Positions 23,339 to 35,759 of a stretch of 64,000 nucleotides of DNA are shown here, piece by piece (within the stretch, counting starts at the first letter, position 1; each line of letters opens with the position of its first letter). The DNA comes from Capsulimonas corticalis (GTDB taxonomy: Bacteria; Armatimonadota; Armatimonadia; Armatimonadales; Capsulimonadaceae). The position numbers were made by a program, and so were the translations under genes. Under the pieces are notes generated by a model. The model saw only the letters and a list, made by a program, of their open reading frames with translations, had not been told where the DNA came from and did not search any database. The stretch lies in assembly GCF_003574315.2 (NCBI RefSeq), contig NZ_AP025739.1, positions 4,154,001 through 4,218,000 on the forward strand, written 5' to 3'.

Positions 23339-25177
23339 TTACACCTGACCACTCAGCATTCGTAACGCCGACAGTGAAGGAGAGAAGAAGTAGCCGCCGC
23401 CCGTCGGAAGCACCCAGTCTTTTTCAGTCGTCAACGCGACGGACTGGGGAGTGCCGTTGGCATCCGGTATGACCGTCTGAAAGTGACGCGTGCGAGTACC
23501 GTCTGCATTGTTCACCTGGCCGATGATGGGGTCCACTCCGGCGCCCGGTTCCTTAAAGTCGGGGTTGTTGGCCCAGCACCGTGTCACGAACTCGAATTGC
23601 CGCTCGATCGACGTCTGGTACGCGAAGAACAGCAGGCCCCGATCGACGTTATCATCAACAGGGGAGGTCGGTGTCGAGGCCGATATGTCGCCGTACGGGA
23701 TGCCTCGGCGCAGCAGCCGGTGCGTCTGCGTGTCAGGCTCGTTCAGCGTCGCGTTCGCCGGACAGCCTGGCGGTGTAGCTCCCGCCACCGCCCCGTATCC
23801 TCCGGTCTGGAGCGGCGTGTCGTCGCGCGGGTAGACCTTTCGGATGTGCGCGCTGAACGGGCACACTTGTCCAGCCGTGTCTCCAGGGGAGGGTGGGGCG
23901 AATTCGTCGGTGCACGAGAAGGGGTCTGACGGAGGGGCTGGAATATTCGCAGTCGCGCCTCCAAACTCAAAGTTGTTGTTGGCGCAGTCGTCGTTTCCGA
24001 GGGTAGAGTTATCCTGGTCCGGCTCTCGCAGAACCGGGGCGCCGCTTGCCCATCGCCCCACCAGACGCGACCCGACCAATGCGGGAGCGCTTCCGGTTGT
24101 AGGGTTGAGCACATTGTTGTTCGTTGCCGTTGTCTTGAGGAAGGCGTGGAAGCCGCCCACATCCTGGCGTAACCGCCTGAATACTAAGAATGATCCGTTT
24201 TTCGCCCATGTCGGGCCCGCTTCCGCGATCGGCCCGGGAATTGGATTGGGTCCATCCCAATCGGCGTTCGGCTGCGAATTCTGCTTCGGATATCCGAATA
24301 CGAACTCGCCGGACCAGAGCAGGTCCTGTCCTGGCTTGCCTTGAGCGGGCGTACCCGGCTGGCCGTTTTGCGATGGCTGATCGCGTTTGGCGGGGTTCTG
24401 CCTCAATGTCAGCACATCTCGCGGATCACTCGACAGCAGGCCGCGTATTCCTGGCTGAGAAATGCCGTCAAGGAAGCCGAAGTGCTCGTGGCCAGAAAGA
24501 TTGCCCGGCAAGTTCGCTCCGTTCTGCTTGAAGGTGATCCGGGCGCCGCTGCCAAGACACTTTCCGTCAGCTACATGTCCAGCGTAGATCGAATCCTCGA
24601 TGCGATTCACCTCAGTCGCTAGGTCCTCGCGTGTGTCGCTCGCTATCTGTACGATGACGAGTGGTTGGGCTCGTTCGCCACCCACGAACCAGCCATCGGG
24701 AGATCCTGGCGCGTCTCCCAACCGGTGCGAACGCTCCGCTAGCCCTTCGACAAAAGCCTGGTCCTTAAAGTCGGTGTCGAGCAGCCCCGGAACCACATCT
24801 TCAAGCGCCGAAAGGGCTTGGAACGTAAACGCGATATTCATCCACGTCGACCGCACGGCAATGCTCTCGTGTCCTCTGCGATGGCGTATGCTTTTGAAGA
24901 GCCGGTTAAACGCGATCACTTCCGCTGTAGTCGCCACGTATGGTAGTTGGGACGCCAGCCACTGCTGGAAATTGGTTGCGTCAGTAATTTCCAGAAATAG
25001 GAATGTCTGGAAATCCTTGTTGAAGCCGCCCAGTATATTTCCCTGAATCTCGTCAACCTCTAGTGGTTGACTGGCAACTTCGTCAGGGAGAATGGCGGTA
25101 TGAGAAGGGATGTTCGGAAGGCCGACGAGCGGCTCAGGCGCTGGCGTCTCGCGAGCAGGGGCGGTCAGGTTTGGCAT
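23339..25177 (-). CDS. DyP-type peroxidase
   Basis: A 612-residue haem peroxidase. Hallmarks: the distal GFLDGISQPG (the GxxDG motif with catalytic Asp), the CPFSAHIRKVYPRDD segment (containing the proximal-side conserved HIRK-PR), LLRRGIPYG, and GLLFFAYQTSIERQFEFV. No Tat or Sec signal peptide is apparent, so it is probably cytoplasmic. The length fits the larger DyP classes rather than the ~310-residue B class. The C terminus (SLSALRMLSGQV) does not match the encapsulin cargo motif and no encapsulin gene is adjacent. AAGGA lies before the ATG. It stands alone and may be ordinary host content between accessory genes. Confidence 0.9.
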   Translation of the reverse strand: MPNLTAPARETPAPEPLVGLPNIPSHTAILPDEVASQPLEVDEIQGNILGGFNKDFQTFLFLEITDATNFQQWLASQLPYVATTAEVIAFNRLFKSIRHRRGHESIAVRSTWMNIAFTFQALSALEDVVPGLLDTDFKDQAFVEGLAERSHRLGDAPGSPDGWFVGGERAQPLVIVQIASDTREDLATEVNRIEDSIYAGHVADGKCLGSGARITFKQNGANLPGNLSGHEHFGFLDGISQPGIRGLLSSDPRDVLTLRQNPAKRDQPSQNGQPGTPAQGKPGQDLLWSGEFVFGYPKQNSQPNADWDGPNPIPGPIAEAGPTWAKNGSFLVFRRLRQDVGGFHAFLKTTATNNNVLNPTTGSAPALVGSRLVGRWASGAPVLREPDQDNSTLGNDDCANNNFEFGGATANIPAPPSDPFSCTDEFAPPSPGDTAGQVCPFSAHIRKVYPRDDTPLQTGGYGAVAGATPPGCPANATLNEPDTQTHRLLRRGIPYGDISASTPTSPVDDNVDRGLLFFAYQTSIERQFEFVTRCWANNPDFKEPGAGVDPIIGQVNNADGTRTRHFQTVIPDANGTPQSVALTTEKDWVLPTGGGYFFSPSLSALRMLSGQV

Positions 25178-25569: not shown

Positions 25570-26313
25570 ATGGAACACCTCATGGCGGATAGGTTTAAAG
25601 GCAAAGATGGAGAGCGCCGCTTAGCTGATTCCTTGGCTGAGCAGGTGCTTGTAGGTGGGGACGCAACATTGGCATCCGAATTGGCCAGGTGCGGCGAGCT
25701 TCTCCAATTTCAGGCCGGAGACCAAGTGATTGTGCAAGGCGGTCACGACAACGATATTTACTTTATCGTTCTAGGCGCTGTTGATGTTTTCGTCCATGGG
25801 AGAAAAGTGGCGAGCCGGCGGGCAGGTTCGCACGTGGGCGAGATGGCCTTGGTTCAGCCTGCGCAGTTGCGATCCGCTACTGTGACGGCCAGCGAACAAA
25901 GTGTCCTGCTTCGTGTCTCCGAACCCGACTTTGTCGGTCTGGGCGATACCTTTCCGGTCCTCTGGCGGAGAATCGCCAAAGAACTCGCTCGCCGCCTTGA
26001 GCAACGTAACTCGCTAGTGGCCAATACACGTGACAAGATCCGAATTTTTATCATGTCTTCTGTGGAATCGCTGGATATCGCCCGGGCGATCCAAAACGGT
26101 TTAGAGTACGACCCGTACCTGGTCGTAGTATGGACGGACGGGGTGTTCCGGGCATCATCCTATCCCATTGATGCGCTCGAAGGGGAAGTGGATCAATCTG
26201 ACTTCGCGATCGCGATTGCCCATGCCGACGATGTAACGCACACCAGGGGAAAGACCTGGCCTACCGCTCGGGACAATGTCGTCTTTGAACTGGGACTTTT
26301 TATAGGTCGCTTA

Positions 26314-27528
26314 GTGGTTCATCTCGTAACTGATGGGGTAGGAAATCTCTAGCCATTGCTGGAGGTGCCCCATGTACCTAAAACTGCGTGACCTTACCGC
26401 CGAAGAACGAACGACACTGGATCGGATCGCTCGCTCGCGCACCGAAGCCGTTCGCTTAGTGGAACGCGCCAAAATGATCTTGGCGATAAATGAGGGTCAG
26501 AGTGGTCCCGAAATCGCACGGCAATTCGGCTGTGACGCCGATAAAGTCTATCGCTGGGTCCATCGGTTTTACGATCAAGGACTGGATGGGCTGCAGGACA
26601 AGCGGCGCAGTGGGCGGCCACGCATTTACACGCCTGATCAGTATGCCGAAGTCATTGGAACTGCTCTGACCAGTCCACAAGAGTTACATCTGCCCTTTGC
26701 CAGTTGGACGTTAGACCGCTTGGCGGCCTATCTCAAAGAGCAAAAGAACATTGCGATGGGGCGTAACCGTATCGATCAGATTTTGATTGCCGAAGGACTG
26801 CTTTTGATTGCCGAAGGACTGCGCTGGCAAACTCAGGAAAGCTGGTTTAGTGTCAAGACCGATCCCGATTTTAAGGCAAAAAGGGGGCGCTCGAAGCACT
26901 CTACCAGCAAGTCCCTGAAGATGCCGTTGTCGTCTGTTTAGACGAGATGGGTCCCGAAGCCGCCAAAACTTATCCTGGCAAACAACTGGTTCGAACGCCA
27001 CAGGTCGGCGACGCGGCCATTCGCGCCAAATACGAAGCTGATTATGGCCGTCGCGGGAAGGGCTACTTCTTTGGAGCCTTCATCCCTGCCACAGGCCAGG
27101 CGTTCACCGCACCCTACGAACGGCGTACAGGCGAGAACTGGGTCTGTTTTCTCGAACAGGTTGATCAATGGGAGCCTTGCCAGGGCAAGCGCGTCCTCGC
27201 CATTACGGACAATCTTGGTTCGCATTTGGGCACGGATGCCCAGCTCTTTTCTGCGGAACACGCGCACTGGGAATTTGTTTTCACGCCAAAATACGCGCCG
27301 TACCTGAACCTGATCGAGCCCTGGTGGAAAATCCTACGCTCGCTGGCGCTCAAAGGACGCCGCTTCGAAACCTTTGAGCAAATATGCACAGCGGTCGAAG
27401 CGGCGACCGATTACTGGAACCATCATCGACACCCATTTCAGTGGGGACATCGACGGCGGCATTTACATCACAGGCAGCCAGGCATAGCGCAAACACCGAC
27501 TGCCGTAGCAATTACGAGATGAACCACT
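26314..27528 (+). mobile_element. IS630-family element inserted in the Pycsar effector
   Basis: A 1215-base element with ends GTGGTTCATCTCGTAA and TTACGAGATGAACCACT, bounded by TA (26312-26313 and 27529-27530), the IS630 target. Removing it with one TA restores an uninterrupted effector frame. The terminal repeats are nearly perfect, so the insertion is recent. Confidence 0.92.
26372..27522 (+). CDS. IS630-family transposase, two frames joined by a -1 shift
   Basis: The first frame (26372-26941) carries the helix-turn-helix region (SGPEIARQFGCDADKVYRWV, GRPRIYTPDQ). The second frame (to 27522) carries the DDE domain: VVCLDEMG, LAITDNLGSHLG and YLNLIEPWWKILRS supply Asp, Asp and Glu. The frames meet at a run of five A then five G near 26876-26886; a -1 slip on AAA gives the continuous sequence KKGALEALYQQ-PEDAVVVC. 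Programmed frameshifting occurs in this family, so the enzyme may be made. A 21-base in-frame tandem duplication (LLLIAEGL twice) lies near 26780-26825. Confidence 0.82.
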
Positions 27529-27723
27529 TAGGCAAGAAACGATCGCTGTTAGTAGAGCGAAGAGGGGAAGAAATTAGATTACCGTCTGACCTGACTGGTC
27601 TTACCACTCTTTCGTACAAGTGGTCCGGGGGCAGCAAAGAGCTCGCCGCCGCTATAGCGCCTGTGTGCAACCACATAAGGGAGGCCGTTCGAGAACTCGG
27701 CCCTAACAATTAAGGACACAGAA

Positions 27724-28431
27724 ATGGGACTGCTCTGGGACAAACTTTCCGACGATGTAGCCGGGATCTTTGCAGCTACATGGACAACTACAGATGGACA
27801 AGTAGTTCCCGACCCGAAAGACATTAGGCTTGGGTCCAATGACGCCATTAGGCTGGACGCCACGATACTTTACGCCGACCTTGCCGAATCGACGAACCTC
27901 GTGGATAACTACCAGCCTACGTTCGCGGCGGAAATCTATAAGGCATATCTGCACTGTGCCGCCAACAGTATCCGCCAAATGGGCGGAGAGATCGTCTCAT
28001 ATGACGGCGACCGGATCATGGCCGTGTACATAGGGGACTCAAAGAACTCCAATGCAGCAAAAAGCGCGTTAAGGATCAACGGGGTTGTCTCCGCATTGAT
28101 AAACCCAGCCCTGATCAAGCAATACGGGGAGGGATCTTACCAATTGAGGCAAGCCGTTGGGATCGACACCAGTCCAGTACTTGTCGCACGAACGGGGGTG
28201 CGTGGCGATAATGATCTTGTATGGGTTGGTAGGGCGGCTAATTATGCCGCAAAGCTGTGCTCCTACAGATCTAGCGGCAATGCAAGTATCATAACCTCAG
28301 ACGTTTATTCTCGCCTGAACGATGAGGCTAAGCTGGATGAAAAGACAGGCCGGTCAATGTGGACATTGTTATCGTCCAGCTACAATGGCATCACTCTGTA
28401 CGGCTCGTCATGGTATACACACAACTTCTAG
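27724..28431 (+). CDS. pycC: Pycsar cyclase (class III nucleotidyl cyclase, PycC-like)
   Basis: A 235-residue single-domain class III cyclase. Metal-binding Asp52 (TILYADLAEST) and Asp96 (SYDGDRIMAVY) are present, and the transition-state region reads VGRAANYAAKL, with Asn173 and Lys177 where adenylate cyclases have Asn and Arg. The adenine-selecting Lys of KF-GD is replaced (SYDGD), as expected for an enzyme that does not use ATP. It begins 10 bases after the effector's stop, with AAGGA before the ATG, so effector and cyclase form the two-gene Pycsar operon. Product (cCMP or cUMP) cannot be told from sequence. The cyclase itself is intact although the effector is broken. Confidence 0.85.
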   Translation: MGLLWDKLSDDVAGIFAATWTTTDGQVVPDPKDIRLGSNDAIRLDATILYADLAESTNLVDNYQPTFAAEIYKAYLHCAANSIRQMGGEIVSYDGDRIMAVYIGDSKNSNAAKSALRINGVVSALINPALIKQYGEGSYQLRQAVGIDTSPVLVARTGVRGDNDLVWVGRAANYAAKLCSYRSSGNASIITSDVYSRLNDEAKLDEKTGRSMWTLLSSSYNGITLYGSSWYTHNF

Positions 28432-28574: not shown

Positions 28575-29051
28575 CTACCCACCACAGGTGATTGGCGCGG
28601 TGCGGCGCAGCCAGTTCTTAGCCCGGCAACCTACCCAAAGCTCGTTCCAACCGACGATAACGAGCAGGACAAAGTCGGTATCCGTCTTCGAATCGTTCAA
28701 CATACTGGCTATCATTTTGCGGTCTTGCGCCGATGGGTGCGGCTGAGCGACTGCGTGCGTATGCCATTCGCCAAGATAGACGACGTATCCGTCGCTCTCT
28801 CGCCAGGCATCGTCAATGATTGCTTGAGCGGCTATACGTGACCGAACAAAGAACGATGGGCCAGCGTCATCGAGTGGGGACGGAGTGGTCGCTCGTTCTA
28901 CCAGCACTGTTCCGTCCTCGAGCCGGCGTCCAAGAAGGATGCCACCCGCCTCATTGGCTCCCTTCGCTTGAATGTGTGCGGAAAATACTTCTAGGACTGA
29001 CGGGGTCAGTATCAGGCGTCGCCCGCGCCGAAGCTTGTACATGCTATTCAC
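28575..29051 (-). CDS. JAB/JAMM isopeptidase (Cap3-like)
   Basis: 158 residues. The JAMM metalloprotease motif is complete: Glu34 (NEAGGILLG), then His97-Thr-His99 and, exactly ten residues on, Asp110 (GEWHTHAVAQPHPSAQD). Such proteins remove ubiquitin-like conjugates; in CBASS type II the equivalent Cap3 releases CD-NTases from targets. The start is a GTG at 29051 that overlaps the E2-E1 stop (GTGA), or an ATG at 29042. As last gene of the six-gene operon it is translationally coupled to the E2-E1 fusion. It ends facing the Pycsar cyclase, with 143 bases between. Confidence 0.9.
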   Translation of the reverse strand: MNSMYKLRRGRRLILTPSVLEVFSAHIQAKGANEAGGILLGRRLEDGTVLVERATTPSPLDDAGPSFFVRSRIAAQAIIDDAWRESDGYVVYLGEWHTHAVAQPHPSAQDRKMIASMLNDSKTDTDFVLLVIVGWNELWVGCRAKNWLRRTAPITCGG

Positions 29052-30853
29052 AGGCAGACCCCGCAGTCTTGCCTGGCGAATATCGGATATATCTGGGAAG
29101 TGAACGATACCTGATCGTCATACAGCCGGGAGATAGCTACGCCCTGATTCCTGGCTGCGTCCAGGTCGCCGAACCAGGTAAAACGTACGTTCTTCCTAGA
29201 CCCCACCATCCCCCGTAGGAACCTTGTCAGCGTGGATACGAAGTCCTGGACATCGGTTCCGCCGTAGGGCATATATGTCGACTGGCAACCAGCCTCCCGA
29301 AGTGAAAACTGTGACGGATTCTCAATAATGCGGGGCACATATTCTAGGTCTGACCCCAACAGACACTCTAGGCACCCTTCCGTCGGATGCCCGAGGTAGA
29401 CTGCGTGGGCGCCAACGAGGTGCGGTTCGACCCATACGAAGCACACTGCGCCTTCGCCCAGGCTGCCTGTTTGGTAAAGGTGGTTGAGCCTCCGCTCTAC
29501 GGCAAGTTCTCCTAGAGCGAATACAGAGAGTGATGCGTCACCTAGTAACTTTGGCGATCGACGAAGCACGTTCAAGACGTTTTCGTTGATGGCGACGCAT
29601 TCGAGCTGAGGGAAGTGCTTGAGCAGTTGTCGCCGTATGGCTACAGCCTTGGCCTGATTTATGTCGGACATGCCGCAATAATGTCGTTGGACGTTTTCAG
29701 GGCGGAGCACTTGGGGATCGATAAGCCGTAGCTTGCTCGCGAGTCCAGATCGGACGAGGCTCTCAGCCACAAAGCTTCCGACTGAGCCACAGCCGACGAC
29801 GTTGACGAACCCGGCCGCCCGTTCTCTCTCCTGACCTTGCGTTCGGGCGATCAGGCGTGGGCTCGTAACCTCGGTTACTGTTGCGCGGACCAGTCGCGCA
29901 TGCCCGTTCAGGGTGTTGAGCTCAAGATGGGGAGGGCACTTTCCCATGCGGAATCCGCTGATCCCGTCCGTTGGCCTGATGTCACTGCCGCAACCCGAGA
30001 GGTATTTTGGCTGCGGATGTGCCCACGCGCCAAGCGCTCTGCCGGTCAGTGATGGAATGGAGAACAGTATCCACGTCGGCGGCTCGTTGTTCACAAGGTA
30101 GTGAGTAATGTGACGTAGCGCGTCGGGGTCGAGCGCTTTCAGACGCTCGAACATCTCCCTGTTGGTTGAGGGGTAGGGTGCTCTCCCAAGATTGCCAATC
30201 GGTACGTATAGGCCGCTCGAGCGTCGCAATTTTGACCGGCATTGCACTGCCTTGATCCATAGCTCGGCAGCGATAGCTTTGTCTGCGAACAGAATGGCTG
30301 TCTGGTTCCATGCTGGAAAGAACTCAAACACGGCGACGCGTTTCACGCGATCACCGGGCCGTACGAGAGCTAAGGCTTCCTGGGGAGCCTCGATCCCCCA
30401 GTAAGCCTTAAACTCGTCCGCGAAGTCGTCGACTGCCGGCTCGCCGATGCTTGCGTCCGCCAAGATCGCTCTTGCGCGCTCGACTACCGCAAGGACCACG
30501 TCGCCCGGGACTTCGGCGTTAGGTGTCGCAGCAGTGCTGTCAAAAGTACAGAGCAATCTGCTGTTGTCAAGGTGCAACATACCCTCGTGGCGCTTCGCGC
30601 ACGCGATGGTTAGATACACCGACGGCAGCTCGTCAGGAAACGTTACCGACAGCGCCAGGAGCATCTCTGGCAGTCCGTCGGAGGCGGTCTGGACATACCA
30701 GACCGCTCTCCAGCGTTCCGCATGTTGCGGGAAGTCCGCCGCGCTCGGATCGCACGCCGTTAAGACGTATGAGGACTCGAGGCGCTCCTGCGCCCGTTTG
30801 CAGGCCACACGGTATTCCCGTTCCAGCATGGTGTTAGGCTGAGCGTCCATCAT
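29048..30853 (-). CDS. E2-E1 fusion (Cap2-like ubiquitin-type transferase)
   Basis: 601 residues. Residues 1-130 form a UBC/E2-like fold (LLALSVTFPDELPSVYLTIA) with a candidate catalytic Cys102 (LLCTFDS). A linker region follows (140-340). The ThiF/E1 adenylation domain begins with VNVVGCGSVGSFVAESLV (354-360 is the nucleotide loop), continues with IDPQVLRPENVQRHY, and has a candidate E1 Cys523 (EAGCQSTYMPYGG). Two zinc knuckles CLEC (494-497) and CGVC (597-600) match E1-like proteins. This order and length equal CBASS Cap2, which conjugates the C terminus of a CD-NTase to proteins. Here no CD-NTase exists; the gene overlaps the tandem cyclase by 20 bases. A later start at 30829 is possible. 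Confidence 0.9.
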   Translation of the reverse strand: MMDAQPNTMLEREYRVACKRAQERLESSYVLTACDPSAADFPQHAERWRAVWYVQTASDGLPEMLLALSVTFPDELPSVYLTIACAKRHEGMLHLDNSRLLCTFDSTAATPNAEVPGDVVLAVVERARAILADASIGEPAVDDFADEFKAYWGIEAPQEALALVRPGDRVKRVAVFEFFPAWNQTAILFADKAIAAELWIKAVQCRSKLRRSSGLYVPIGNLGRAPYPSTNREMFERLKALDPDALRHITHYLVNNEPPTWILFSIPSLTGRALGAWAHPQPKYLSGCGSDIRPTDGISGFRMGKCPPHLELNTLNGHARLVRATVTEVTSPRLIARTQGQERERAAGFVNVVGCGSVGSFVAESLVRSGLASKLRLIDPQVLRPENVQRHYCGMSDINQAKAVAIRRQLLKHFPQLECVAINENVLNVLRRSPKLLGDASLSVFALGELAVERRLNHLYQTGSLGEGAVCFVWVEPHLVGAHAVYLGHPTEGCLECLLGSDLEYVPRIIENPSQFSLREAGCQSTYMPYGGTDVQDFVSTLTRFLRGMVGSRKNVRFTWFGDLDAARNQGVAISRLYDDQVSFTSQIYPIFARQDCGVCL

Positions 30854-32330
30854 GCCTCAATATGTACGGGGCAGGCGACTGGACGGCGGCAGCCTGCTTG
30901 GTCGTTTCACCGTCTGGATCCTCTGAGGTGAGGTCAGCCGCTACGTAGTATCGCCGGTCCGAGTCGTAGGAGAACTGCTTCTTGAGCCGGTCCGGCAGGG
31001 CGTCGTATACCCGTTTCGAGACTCCGGTTTCCTTCCCCTCGCACTTCTCCTCCATGGAAGCTGCGGAGTCGACGGGCTCCCCGAGACAAATCCGGTCGCG
31101 GTGGCCGCGGGTGCCGAGCTTTGTGATCAGTGTCGTCCCCTGGTCGACGCCAGCAGCCAGGTTCAGTTTCTTCTTAACGTTTGGCAAGCAGTCCTTGAGA
31201 GATCGCTCCATGGATGCCTGTAGCCCTGCAGCCGTGTCCGTCGCCTCGGTTGCGACCCCGGTTTCGTCATCCTTGGGCAAGTGAATGATGCCCTGCACGC
31301 GGTCCCCTTGGAACTGGATTCGGATCCCGTTGAAGTCTCTCCGGACGACTGCCGCCATTTCCTTGCGTATGACGTGGAACTCGCGTAGACGTTCCTTTTT
31401 GGCTTCGTCGGTGGTCGCCGCGTCGATGTACGCCGTGAATCCGGTGACGTCGCCGTAGACCGAAGCCGCCATGACGCGTTTGTTCTTGCGTATGCTCAAG
31501 TCGTCCACGTCGATCAACTGGTTTGCGGAACTATACTCCACTACGGTAAGGGGGAAGCTTTCCTTGTCGGCCTCGACTCGCTTCTTGCTTGCTTCCCGGT
31601 CCCAGCCGATCCCGTGCGACTTTGTCAGCGCGTCGAGCTTCGCCTGTGAGATGTGCTGCACCTGATAAATGTCATCCTTGTCTGTGACCTCATCGCAGAT
31701 CCCCTGGATATCATCCGGCAATTCGTCGTATACTCGCTTCGTTAGCCGGAGCTGACCGTGTGAATTGATGATCTTCGCCGCGTGATTGGCCGGCGCGCCG
31801 AGAAACAGCAGCTCCCGGTCCTTCGCTTCTCCGTTACGGGTCCCGATCGCATTACCGATGTCCGCACCGCCGGCGATGCGGAAGTTGTCATAGTCAGGGA
31901 ACGCCGGGTTGAAGACCGACGAGACGAAGTCCTTCACAACAAGCTCCAGAAGAATGGCGTGCGCGGAGATCTTCTCGGCGTTGTCGATGGGACGGTATAT
32001 GAGCGCGTGCGCCTTCGGGCCCTGAAAATGCACCCGTACCGCATTGAATATTGCCTCGTCCTGGATGATGCGGCCGACTTCCCGCTGGTAGATGTGCACC
32101 GCTCGGATAAAGCCCTTGTACCGGTCGCTATCGTCGATCTCTTCCGAAGCCAGCTTGGCGAAGTTGGAAACGTGGAGGTATACGTGCGACCCGTAGATCT
32201 CACGGCAGCAGGTCTCGGTAAGGAGATCGTCCAGCTTTGCCTCGCGGACGAGTTTCTTGACCTCGATGTCCCCCATGGAGTCGAGGTGTTGTTGGATGCG
32301 CTTCTTGCTAGTTTCGTAGTCCCAGGCCAT
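30834..32330 (-). CDS. Tandem class III cyclase with one complementary active site
   Basis: 498 residues with two class III cyclase-like domains (about 45-205 and 285-445), each preceded by a repeated W-D-x-E-x-S-K-K-R helix (positions 3-11 and 243-251). Domain 2 keeps both metal-binding Asp residues (D294 in VYGDVTGFT, D343 in FQGDRVQG) but its Asn/Arg positions read D421 and S425. Domain 1 has lost the Asps (H53, P105) yet keeps Asn182 and Lys186 (LGAPANHAAKI). Together they could form one composite site like C1/C2 of mammalian adenylate cyclase. The adenine-specifying Lys is absent. The C-terminal 30 residues look disordered and end in Gly-Arg-Ser-Ala. GAGGAGG precedes the ATG. Confidence 0.82.
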   Translation of the reverse strand: MAWDYETSKKRIQQHLDSMGDIEVKKLVREAKLDDLLTETCCREIYGSHVYLHVSNFAKLASEEIDDSDRYKGFIRAVHIYQREVGRIIQDEAIFNAVRVHFQGPKAHALIYRPIDNAEKISAHAILLELVVKDFVSSVFNPAFPDYDNFRIAGGADIGNAIGTRNGEAKDRELLFLGAPANHAAKIINSHGQLRLTKRVYDELPDDIQGICDEVTDKDDIYQVQHISQAKLDALTKSHGIGWDREASKKRVEADKESFPLTVVEYSSANQLIDVDDLSIRKNKRVMAASVYGDVTGFTAYIDAATTDEAKKERLREFHVIRKEMAAVVRRDFNGIRIQFQGDRVQGIIHLPKDDETGVATEATDTAAGLQASMERSLKDCLPNVKKKLNLAAGVDQGTTLITKLGTRGHRDRICLGEPVDSAASMEEKCEGKETGVSKRVYDALPDRLKKQFSYDSDRRYYVAADLTSEDPDGETTKQAAAVQSPAPYILRHDGRSA

Positions 32331-32341
32331 GTTGCCCCTCC

Positions 32342-33436
32342 TCAGTTGGTCTTTGCCGCAGTCCAGGTGTATAGAGTCTGCTGCGGCGCCCCGGCGATTT
32401 CAACACTTTGGTGTCGCTCGAGATCTGATTGCTCGCTACCGGTCAGCCGCCCGTAGAACTCTTCGCCGACGGTGATCGTAGCGCCAAGCTTCTTACACTG
32501 GGTTTCAAAACGGGAGGCTAGATTGACTGGCGCTCCGAGGACCGTAAACTGCCTCTTGCCATCTCCGCCGACGTTGCCGATAAAGACGCGGCCCGCATTT
32601 AGTCCGACGCCGATCGAAATCGGCTTCCCGCCAAAACTCAGCGCCTGGGCTGCAGCCACCATAGACTTAGCGCAGTTCAAGGCAAGAGATGCGGGCTCCC
32701 CGTCAGCGGGCGCATAGCCCCAAATCGCCATAACGGCGTCGCCGACAAACTTGTCGACCATTCCCTCGTGGTCGTGGATTATCCCGACCATCGTATCGAG
32801 ATAGCGGCTAAGCTGAGAAGCAACATCCGCTGGATCCAATTCCCCGGAGAGATCGGTGAACGACCGTATGTCAGAGAAGAGAACTATCGCGTCGATGTAT
32901 CGCGGCTCTCCATATCTCAGCCCGGTCGCCATTAACCTGTTGAGGACCGGCTGCGAAACGTGCGAGCGGAACTCGGCGAAAAGCAGGTCTTCCTTCTTGT
33001 AGCGGTAAGCACGTTCCGCCGTCGCCTCCGCCAGCTTTCTTGAAACCTCCTGCAAGAGGCCCCGCAGGAACGAGGGATCCTGCAGGAAGGTGCTTGCCAG
33101 CGCTCGCGGGATCTGGAAAAGCTGCACGGCCCCTTGGGCCGTGCCCGTCGCGGAGCGCGGACAGTCATCGATTATCGCCTGTTCCCCAACCACTTCGAAC
33201 GCTTGTCGAGTCGCCATGTGAGAACCGTCCCGAGTGATTCGGACTTGGCCATGCAAAATTATATAGAGAAAACGAGCTTCCTCTCCCTCATGGAATATGA
33301 TTTCGCCGTCTCGATACTCGCACAGGAAATCGGGCGTAATCGCATCCTTGAGATTGTTGGGCAGGCTGGAAAGCACTGGCACTATACCGATAGACTCGGT
33401 CCAGCGTTTCGGATCATCTGTTTCTTTGATGGCCAT
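32342..33436 (-). CDS. cNMP-binding domain plus adenylate cyclase
   Basis: About 364 residues from the ATG at 33436 (GAGGAG before it). Residues 20-135 are a CRP-like cyclic-nucleotide-binding domain with the cassette GEQAIIDDCPRSAT. Residues 180-350 are a class III cyclase with every canonical residue: Asp189 (FSDIRSFTDL), Lys229 and Asp233 (KFVGD), Thr298 (QFTVLGAPVNL), Asn305 and Arg309 (VNLASRFE). The Lys/Thr pair predicts ATP as substrate. A cyclase with its own cNMP sensor suggests feedback or amplification by the product of the neighbouring tandem cyclase. Twelve bases separate it from the tandem-cyclase gene. Confidence 0.88.
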   Translation of the reverse strand: MAIKETDDPKRWTESIGIVPVLSSLPNNLKDAITPDFLCEYRDGEIIFHEGEEARFLYIILHGQVRITRDGSHMATRQAFEVVGEQAIIDDCPRSATGTAQGAVQLFQIPRALASTFLQDPSFLRGLLQEVSRKLAEATAERAYRYKKEDLLFAEFRSHVSQPVLNRLMATGLRYGEPRYIDAIVLFSDIRSFTDLSGELDPADVASQLSRYLDTMVGIIHDHEGMVDKFVGDAVMAIWGYAPADGEPASLALNCAKSMVAAAQALSFGGKPISIGVGLNAGRVFIGNVGGDGKRQFTVLGAPVNLASRFETQCKKLGATITVGEEFYGRLTGSEQSDLERHQSVEIAGAPQQTLYTWTAAKTN

Positions 33437-33506
33437 GTAAGGGCTCCTCAGTGTGGCATCGCGCTCACCGCGTTCACACAAGGCTGTGAACGCGTGCGCT
33501 AAAAAA

Positions 33507-35042: not shown

Positions 35043-35099
35043 GGTAGCTCCGCGTAAAGGGATAAGGCATGGTACCTTATATTGGGTATAGGATTAACT

Positions 35100-35759
35100 A
35101 TGAAGCTTCTCGCGTTGGCTGACATTCATAGCGACTTCGAACGTTTTTCCGTCAATGACCTTCCAGCGGCGGATGTTATGCTGTTCGCGGGCGACCTAAC
35201 AGACAATGGTATCCGCGACCCTGTTGCGCTATCGCTGGCAACTACGTGGTTGGATGCTGCCGCTGCGCGATACGGGCTCGTAATCGCTATACCTGGCAAC
35301 CACGATGTAGGCCTTAGTGGAAGCTGTCTGCCGGCGGTGAATGGAGTGCGTTGGGTTCAAGGCATCACAACTTCGTTTAGCGATTGTTCCGCCTCGCAGA
35401 TTTACAAGCTCCACGGAGTAAACCTTTCGCCTAGCTATGCGATGCCCGAGCTTGAGGCGCGATGGGATTTCATGACATCCGATGAATTGACGGAGACGGT
35501 TGCATATGGTTTTGAGCCAGTCGACATTGTCCTATCGCATGCTCCGCCATATGGCGTCCTTGATGGATATTCTCCTGAGGACGGTGGCGAAGTCCTGCAT
35601 ATTGGCAGCCGCGCTCTGCTATCGTATATACATCGATGCGCTCCCGCACTGGTGATCTGCGGACATGTCCACGGCGCCCATGGTATCGCCGAGGCGAGCG
35701 CCAACACTCTCGTATACAACGTGGCTGAAACGCCCACATTGATCGAAATTCCAAGTTGA
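35100..35759 (+). CDS. Calcineurin-like metallophosphoesterase
   Basis: 219 residues from the ATG at 35100. The five family blocks are visible: LADIHSDFE (DxH), FAGDLTDNG (GDxxD), IPGNHDVG (GNHD), VLSHAPPYG and VICGHVHGAHG (GHxH). It should hydrolyse phosphoesters, possibly cyclic nucleotides. It is divergent from the six-gene operon with only 57 bases between, so the two share a control region. I infer that it could degrade the operon's signal, for example as an off-switch, but nothing in the sequence fixes its substrate. Confidence 0.82.
   Translation: MKLLALADIHSDFERFSVNDLPAADVMLFAGDLTDNGIRDPVALSLATTWLDAAAARYGLVIAIPGNHDVGLSGSCLPAVNGVRWVQGITTSFSDCSASQIYKLHGVNLSPSYAMPELEARWDFMTSDELTETVAYGFEPVDIVLSHAPPYGVLDGYSPEDGGEVLHIGSRALLSYIHRCAPALVICGHVHGAHGIAEASANTLVYNVAETPTLIEIPS

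What the first reader, a model, noticed from the sequence alone, without database searches (positions are those of the whole stretch)
30834..32330. Tandem cyclase with complementary loss of catalytic residues
Domain 2 keeps both metal Asps (294, 343) but lacks the Asn/Arg pair; domain 1 lacks the Asps (His53, Pro105) but keeps Asn182 and Lys186. Mammalian adenylate cyclase C1/C2 has the same division of labour. The adenine-selecting Lys is missing in both, so the product may be a non-adenine cyclic nucleotide, as in PycC.
Basis: partly seen in the sequence, partly recalled or inferred. Interest (0 to 1): 0.75.

Follow-up and report, generated by a model that had tools for sequence, protein, structure and literature searches.

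The report
Pyrimidine cyclase with ubiquitin-like conjugation module
The gene is a two-domain bacterial anti-virus alarm enzyme of a known kind (a Pycsar pyrimidine cyclase), and its surprise lies in its neighbours: a second, cyclic-nucleotide-gated cyclase where the killer protein normally sits, and a ubiquitin-like tagging machine that probably attaches the alarm enzyme to other proteins by its tail.

Summary
ORF 30834-32330 (minus strand, 498 aa) has two class III cyclase domains. Domain 2 keeps both metal Asps (D294, D343), domain 1 keeps Asn182/Lys186, and neither has the adenine Lys. The split is not new. The protein is a clade A PycC; the solved PaPycC (6YII) has the same head-to-tail fold (Z 42.5, 451 residues), and 95 of 95 relatives show the essential split. 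Clades A-D make cUMP (literature), so "non-adenine product" is very likely right.

New here is the operon: CapK/CapS-like regulators, a CNBD-adenylate cyclase fusion, the tandem PycC, a Cap2-like E2-E1 and a Cap3-like JAB, as in type II CBASS with PycC in place of the CD-NTase. Tandem PycCs beside an E2-E1 end in Ala or Ser in 35/35 loci (13/55 in Ala, Gly or Ser beside E2 only), resembling the Gly/Ala tail that Cap2 conjugates. The CNBD-cyclase, with all six adenylate cyclase residues, replaces the usual CNBD-TIR or membrane effector in 11 loci, arising repeatedly. I infer that cUMP made by a conjugated PycC gates a second cyclase. The CNBD lacks the known cUMP-reading Asn, so its ligand is open. 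New variant of a known kind.

The parts
30834..32330 (-). Tandem pyrimidine cyclase (clade A PycC), 498 aa, with a disordered C-terminal tail ending in Ala
   Evidence: PDLC00765 2.7e-115; 6yii 1e-39
31656..32213 (-). Cyclase domain 1 (about residues 40-225): supplies Asn182 (31785-31787) and Lys186 (31773-31775); metal-Asp sites are His53 and Pro105
30936..31493 (-). Cyclase domain 2 (about residues 280-465): supplies metal Asps D294 (31449-31451) and D343 (31302-31304); Asn/Arg pair absent
30837..30920 (-). C-terminal tail, residues 471-498, pLDDT under 50, ending ...HDGRSA: proposed conjugation tail
29048..30853 (-). Cap2-like E2-E1 fusion, 601 aa; E2 motif H94...C102, E1 GxGxxG from 354, candidate E1 Cys 523; gene overlaps the cyclase gene by 20 bp
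   Evidence: ThiF, Prok-E2_B; PDLC00850 3.5e-132; Cap2 7TO3/7TSQ
28575..29051 (-). Cap3-like JAB isopeptidase, 158 aa, with JAMM motif (E34, HTHAVAQPHPSAQD from 97); 4-bp overlap with the E2-E1 gene
32342..33481 (-). CNBD-adenylate cyclase fusion, up to 379 aa (TTG start; perhaps ATG at residue 16), 11 bp upstream of the tandem cyclase
   Evidence: cNMP_binding 1.3e-16, Guanylate_cyc 2e-19; PDLC00734
33507..34064 (-). STAS-like (DUF4325) plus winged-helix protein, CapS-like regulator
   Evidence: weak: DUF4325 0.009, HTH 0.1; architecture as CapS in PMC13373217
34149..35042 (-). STAS plus GHKL ATPase protein, CapK-like regulatory kinase
   Evidence: HATPase_c_2 8.8e-9, STAS_2 2.9e-4; architecture as CapK in PMC13373217, but no N-terminal HTH was seen

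Best explanation
The protein is a clade A Pycsar pyrimidine cyclase. Its two cyclase domains fold onto each other head-to-tail and build one working active site: metal Asps from domain 2, transition-state Asn and Lys from domain 1. It most likely turns UTP into cUMP when a phage infects. It sits in a six-gene defence operon. The Cap2-like E2-E1 adenylates the cyclase's flexible C-terminal Ala and conjugates the cyclase to a target, which primes it, and the Cap3-like JAB removes it, as Cap2/Cap3 do with CD-NTases in type II CBASS. The messenger is read by the CNBD of the neighbouring CNBD-adenylate cyclase, which takes the place of the usual CNBD-TIR effector; its activation makes cAMP from ATP, as a relay or as an ATP drain. 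CapK/CapS-like proteins control expression. Shown here: the fold and the residue split, conservation of the gene order, the tail signature, effector-slot replacement, and intact adenylate cyclase residues. Inferred: the product cUMP, conjugation itself, gating of the second cyclase, and antiphage function.
For: Tandem PycC models 2.7e-115; 6YII by sequence 1e-39 and fold Z 42.5; residue split in 95/95. Clades A-D make cUMP (PMC11224242), and active-site columns do not differ between tandem PycCs next to CNBD-cyclase and close relatives next to CNBD-TIR. E2-E1-associated tandem PycCs end in Ala (31) or Ser (4), 35/35, against 13/55 Ala/Gly/Ser when only an E2 is present (Fisher 1.8e-14); Cap2 substrates end in Gly/Ala (PMC10097602). 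The tail is disordered in the model. The closest plasmid E2-E1 relatives sit beside DncV-like CD-NTases. CNBD-cyclase lies directly upstream of the tandem PycC in 11 loci spread over Pseudomonadota, Gemmatimonadota, Eremiobacterota and the window's genome, where another Pycsar effector is near in 2/11 against 79/84 elsewhere (Fisher 8e-8; 6-7 of 8 independent contrasts agree, none opposes). Several such operons hold only CNBD-cyclase, PycC and E2. CNBD-cyclase keeps D204, D248, K244, T313, N320 and R324 in every row.
Against: The CNBD of the CNBD-cyclases has Lys and Thr/Ser (9/9 rows) where PycTIR has the cUMP-reading Arg138 and Asn143, so it may bind another nucleotide. The tail signature rests on only three or four independent gains of E2-E1; the phylogeny-aware contrast has too few pairs to reach significance, and one E2-only relative (L019) also ends in Ala. 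Four E2-E1-associated tails end in Ser, which Cap2 did not accept on the CD-NTase tested. CapKS identity is weak by sequence. No activity has been measured on this operon or any close relative.
Confidence: 0.6

Rival explanations
1. The CNBD-adenylate cyclase is not the effector but a regulator or amplifier: its CNBD binds cAMP (Ser/Thr at the CRP Ser128 position), giving positive feedback, and the killing protein lies elsewhere in the genome.
For: Thr/Ser in place of Asn143 in 9/9 rows; canonical adenylate cyclase residues; cUMP signature missing; one relative operon (L008) also carries a DUF2235 protein after the E2.
Against: It occupies the slot of CNBD-TIR, rarely co-occurs with another known effector (2/11), and several operons have no other gene to serve as effector.
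Confidence: 0.25
2. The tandem cyclase makes a purine cyclic nucleotide (cAMP or cGMP), so the CNBD-cyclase and the tandem cyclase share a messenger.
For: Base-contact columns in the window's subclade differ from the main clade A (Gln341/Arg344 instead of Ile/Cys); CNBD-cyclase lacks the uracil-reading Asn.
Against: No adenine Lys in either domain. The same subclade includes members paired with a CNBD-TIR, and L017's keeps the Arg-Asn uracil signature. Clades A-D are reported to make cUMP.
Confidence: 0.1
3. The E2-E1 and JAB genes act on something other than the cyclase, so the juxtaposition is operon shuffling without a conjugated cyclase.
For: Conjugation of a class III cyclase was not described in any paper I could read; the window's E2-E1 looks newly acquired, as its sister L016 has an E2-only gene.
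Against: Tight coupling (20-bp and 4-bp overlaps), an E2 or E2-E1 next to virtually every tandem PycC, and the Ala/Ser tail in all E2-E1 loci but few others.
Confidence: 0.12
4. The tandem cyclase is catalytically dead and only scaffolds or senses.
For: Domain 1 lost both Asps and domain 2 lost Asn/Arg, so a symmetric two-site enzyme is impossible.
Against: Complementary retention of one complete composite site in 95/95 is not expected of a dead enzyme.
Confidence: 0.03

Closest known systems
Clade A PycC, e.g. PaPycC of Pseudomonas aeruginosa (PDB 6YII)
   Same: Two consecutive cyclase domains, same residue split, same head-to-tail single-chain fold over 451 residues
   Different: 26% identity; this branch has Gln/Arg instead of Ile/Cys around the second metal Asp; tail ends in Ala; partnered with a Cap2-like E2-E1 and a CNBD-cyclase
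Pycsar (PycC plus CNBD-TIR or transmembrane effector)
   Same: Pyrimidine-type cyclase in a defence operon with a CNBD protein next to it; relatives L016, L017 and L020 have CNBD-TIR
   Different: The CNBD carries an adenylate cyclase instead of a TIR
Type II CBASS (Cap2/Cap3)
   Same: Signal enzyme, then E2-E1, then JAB in one operon; signal enzyme with a flexible tail ending in Ala; nearest plasmid E2-E1 relatives are CBASS Cap2
   Different: The signal enzyme is a class III cyclase, not a CD-NTase
Mammalian adenylate cyclase C1/C2 and soluble AC
   Same: One composite active site from two non-equivalent domains; Z 27-31
   Different: Domain roles reversed in order; no adenine Lys; bacterial defence context
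CapK/CapS (PMC13373217)
   Same: STAS-GHKL gene followed by STAS-wHTH gene directly upstream of a defence operon
   Different: No HTH seen at the N-terminus of the CapK-like protein; the section read does not list Pycsar among the CapKS-associated operons

Membership tests
PycC clade A | Two consecutive class III cyclase domains in one chain | tested here: met
PycC clade A | Full-length homology to PycC models and to PaPycC | tested here: met
   PDLC00765 2.7e-115; 6YII 1e-39 over residues 2-496
PycC clade A | One complete composite catalytic site (two Asps from one domain, Asn and Lys from the other) | tested here: met
PycC clade A | UTP to cUMP activity | not testable with these tools
   Needs purified enzyme; clades A-D are reported to make cUMP (PMC11224242)
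Pycsar | Cyclase encoded next to a cyclic-nucleotide-binding effector (CNBD-TIR) or a transmembrane effector | tested here: inconclusive
   The adjacent CNBD protein carries a cyclase, not a TIR or TM segment; sister loci carry CNBD-TIR
Pycsar | Protection against phage | not testable with these tools
   Needs plaque assays
Type II CBASS | CD-NTase signal enzyme | tested here: not met
   None of the six operon genes matches a CD-NTase; the slot holds the tandem PycC
Type II CBASS | Cap2-like E2-E1 and Cap3-like JAB with catalytic residues | tested here: met
   E2 H94/C102, E1 GxGxxG, JAMM motif
Type II CBASS | Signal enzyme ends in Gly or Ala | tested here: met
   Ala498; 31/35 Ala and 4/35 Ser among E2-E1-linked tandem PycCs
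Class III adenylate cyclase (the neighbouring CNBD fusion) | Two metal Asps, adenine Lys and Thr/Asp, Asn, Arg | tested here: met
   D204, D248, K244, T313, N320, R324 invariant in 9 rows
PycTIR-type cUMP receptor (CNBD of the fusion) | Arg138 and Asn143 that read uracil | tested here: not met
   Lys149 and Thr154 at these positions; 9/9 CNBD-cyclases have Lys and Thr/Ser
CapK/CapS | HTH-STAS-GHKL kinase gene followed by STAS-wHTH gene, upstream of a defence operon | tested here: inconclusive
   STAS-GHKL then STAS-wHTH in the right order, but weak scores and no HTH found on the first

The most novel reading that the evidence does not exclude
A two-messenger, ubiquitin-like-conjugated Pycsar: a class III pyrimidine cyclase is covalently attached to targets through its C-terminal Ala by a Cap2-like enzyme, and its product switches on a second, ATP-using cyclase that acts as the effector (cNMP relay or ATP drain).
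Probability: 0.4. Interest if true: 0.82.

Novelty: new variant of a known kind. Interest (0 to 1): 0.6.

Why it matters
If right, Cap2/Cap3-type tagging is not tied to cGAS-like enzymes but can serve signal enzymes of another fold: it was taken up about three or four times by class III pyrimidine cyclases, each time with a small-residue tail. It would also add an adenylate cyclase to the known outputs of bacterial nucleotide-signalling defence, with one cyclic nucleotide calling up another. Both claims are testable with simple deletions in a laboratory E. coli host.

Tried and rejected
A single-protein scan of genome contigs found no relatives; an alignment-based scan found 144 and kept 80. 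No relatives in the phage collection. Within the window's own phylum only 1 of 291 genomes (its own) has a tandem PycC by the PADLOC model, so vertical inheritance within the phylum was rejected as the main route. The idea that the residue split is new was rejected. The phylogeny-aware test of the tail signature was inconclusive for lack of independent pairs. MAFFT placed His94 of the E2-E1 under the E2 Cys column; the H(x7)C motif shows that Cys102 is the counterpart. Two rows labelled E2-only (L064, L096) are cut contigs and were dropped from the tree statistics. The CNBD-cyclase model has a weak overall pTM (0.53), so its domain arrangement was not interpreted. The original Pycsar paper (Tal et al. 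2021) is not in the library, so whether it already mentions E1/E2/JAB genes or CNBD-cyclases next to clade A PycC could not be checked; PADLOC has E1-E2 models that match the Pycsar-linked proteins at 1e-180 and better and labels the CNBD-cyclase family PycC, so these proteins were at least in a defence database.

Full report
Observation. The ORF at 30834-32330 lies on the minus strand and encodes 498 residues. In 95 tandem proteins the two domain-2 Asps and the domain-1 Asn are invariant, the Lys is present in 94, the second domain-1 Asp is never present and the adenine Lys is absent throughout. The first domain-1 Asp persists in 79, so the loss of both Asps seen here is a feature of this protein and a minority of others.

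Identity. The best PADLOC models are three tandem PycC models (2.7e-115 and weaker), and the only full-length match in the PDB is 6YII (1e-39), which a 2024 paper names PaPycC, clade A. The same paper states that clade A has two consecutive cyclase domains and that clades A-D convert UTP to cUMP (PMC11224242). The AlphaFold model (pLDDT 88, pTM 0.87) superposes on 6YII with Z 42.5 over 451 residues and on mammalian C1/C2 pairs with Z 27-31 over about 365 residues, so the two domains pair head-to-tail within the chain.

Surroundings. Six genes run in one direction from 35042 down to 28575: STAS-GHKL (CapK-like), STAS-wHTH (CapS-like), CNBD-adenylate cyclase, tandem PycC, E2-E1 (Cap2-like) and JAB (Cap3-like). 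The gaps between the last four are +11, -20 and -4 bp. CapK and CapS are a DNA-damage-responsive pair found upstream of CBASS, Bil, Bub and other operons (PMC13373217). The E2-E1 matches Cap2 structures, and on plasmids its best relatives sit beside DncV-like CD-NTases, i.e. in type II CBASS. The JAB matches a solved bacterial peptidase (9ILD, 1e-15) and keeps its JAMM motif.

Is the association general? A scan of one genome per species gave 80 tandem-PycC loci, to which plasmid loci were added. An E2-only protein or an E2-E1 fusion follows practically every tandem PycC: 35 have E2-E1 (29 of them with JAB), 55 have E2 only, and the three called 'none' are near-identical Methylobacterium loci where the E2 is annotated but my ORF filter missed it. 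Where an E2-E1 is present the cyclase ends in Ala (31) or Ser (4); where only an E2 is present the last residue is of any kind (13/55 Ala, Gly or Ser; Fisher 1.8e-14). In type II CBASS a terminal Gly or Ala is conserved only in CD-NTases from operons with Cap2 and Cap3, and Cap2 forms a thioester with that residue (PMC10097602). The tree has the window's nearest relative (L016, Acidobacteria, 61% identity) with an E2-only gene and a Lys end, and needs four changes of the E2-E1 label. Fisher's test ignores this kinship; with three supported independent pairs the sign test cannot decide. With Ser counted with Ala and Gly, every pair that differs goes in the expected direction.

The CNBD-cyclase. 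In 11 loci (the window; Eremiobacterota, Gemmatimonadota and several Pseudomonadota, including Agrobacterium, Azospirillum, Bradyrhizobium and Methylobacterium) a CNBD-cyclase lies directly upstream of the tandem PycC. It keeps all six adenylate cyclase residues. Another known Pycsar effector is within 3.2 kb in 2 of these 11 loci against 79 of 84 others (Fisher 8e-8). The two exceptions are the window itself, whose neighbouring CNBD-TIR is on the other strand and split by an IS element, and L074, whose CNBD-TIR lies next to a second tandem PycC operon. The label changes eight times on the tree; in 6-7 of 8 independent contrasts presence of CNBD-cyclase goes with absence of the other effectors, never the reverse (median p 0.016). 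Several operons consist only of CNBD-cyclase, tandem PycC and E2. A Rhizobium plasmid has a CNBD-cyclase of the same family next to a different single-domain class III cyclase. The economical reading is that the CNBD-cyclase is the receptor and output of this Pycsar variant.

What does not fit. PycTIR reads cUMP with Arg138 and Asn143 (PMC11224242). The CNBD-cyclases have Lys and Thr/Ser there, while the active sites of their tandem PycCs are the same as in sister lineages with CNBD-TIR. Either the pocket reads cUMP in another way, or the CNBD binds cAMP and the coupling is different. This is why the relay is given only moderate confidence.

Verdict. The operon is a new variant: a clade A Pycsar cyclase with a type II CBASS-like conjugation module and a cyclase in the effector slot. 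Whether the original Pycsar paper already noted the E1/E2/JAB neighbours could not be checked; searches of the open library found no description.

Noticed in passing
25570-28431 (+): A second, canonical Pycsar pair (CNBD-TIR and single-domain PycC, PADLOC 3e-104 and 2e-91) is broken: an IS630-type element (26372-27522) splits the TIR gene, and the remaining C-terminal piece lies after the element.
   Followed up: partly
35082-35759 (+): A calcineurin-like phosphoesterase starts about 40 bp from the CapK-like gene in the opposite direction and matches a PADLOC candidate defence family (PDC-S10, 8.5e-27).
   Followed up: no
L061 and L074 (Bradyrhizobium): Two tandem-PycC operons lie side by side: one with E2-E1 and JAB (with a CNBD-TIR in L074), the other with CNBD-cyclase and E2 only.
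   Followed up: partly
L100 4114-6011 (Rhizobium leguminosarum plasmid pRLN3): A CNBD-cyclase of the same family (PDLC00734 3.8e-117) overlaps a single-domain class III cyclase that only weakly matches PycC models; possibly a two-gene relative of the relay.
   Followed up: partly
L045 7411-8665 (Rhizomicrobium MAG): CapH/CapP regulators (PADLOC 5.9e-13 and 5.5e-53) precede CNBD-cyclase, tandem PycC, E2-E1 and JAB, i.e. another DNA-damage control on the same kind of operon.
   Followed up: partly
L009 7533-9227 and its GFA/GFS-tail relatives: The E2-E1 of the main group seems to lack the Cys-containing AC(G/Q)...PYG motif seen in the window and Agrobacterium versions, so E1-to-E2 transfer may differ between the groups.
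   Followed up: no
L016-L020: In the window's subclade the E2-only members share a tail motif (TPSRS or similar near the end) that the window's cyclase has lost; its tail is shorter.
   Followed up: no
23339-25177 (-): A 612-aa protein with a DyP_N domain near the start and a Dyp_perox_C match near the end, separated by a long unassigned stretch.
   Followed up: no
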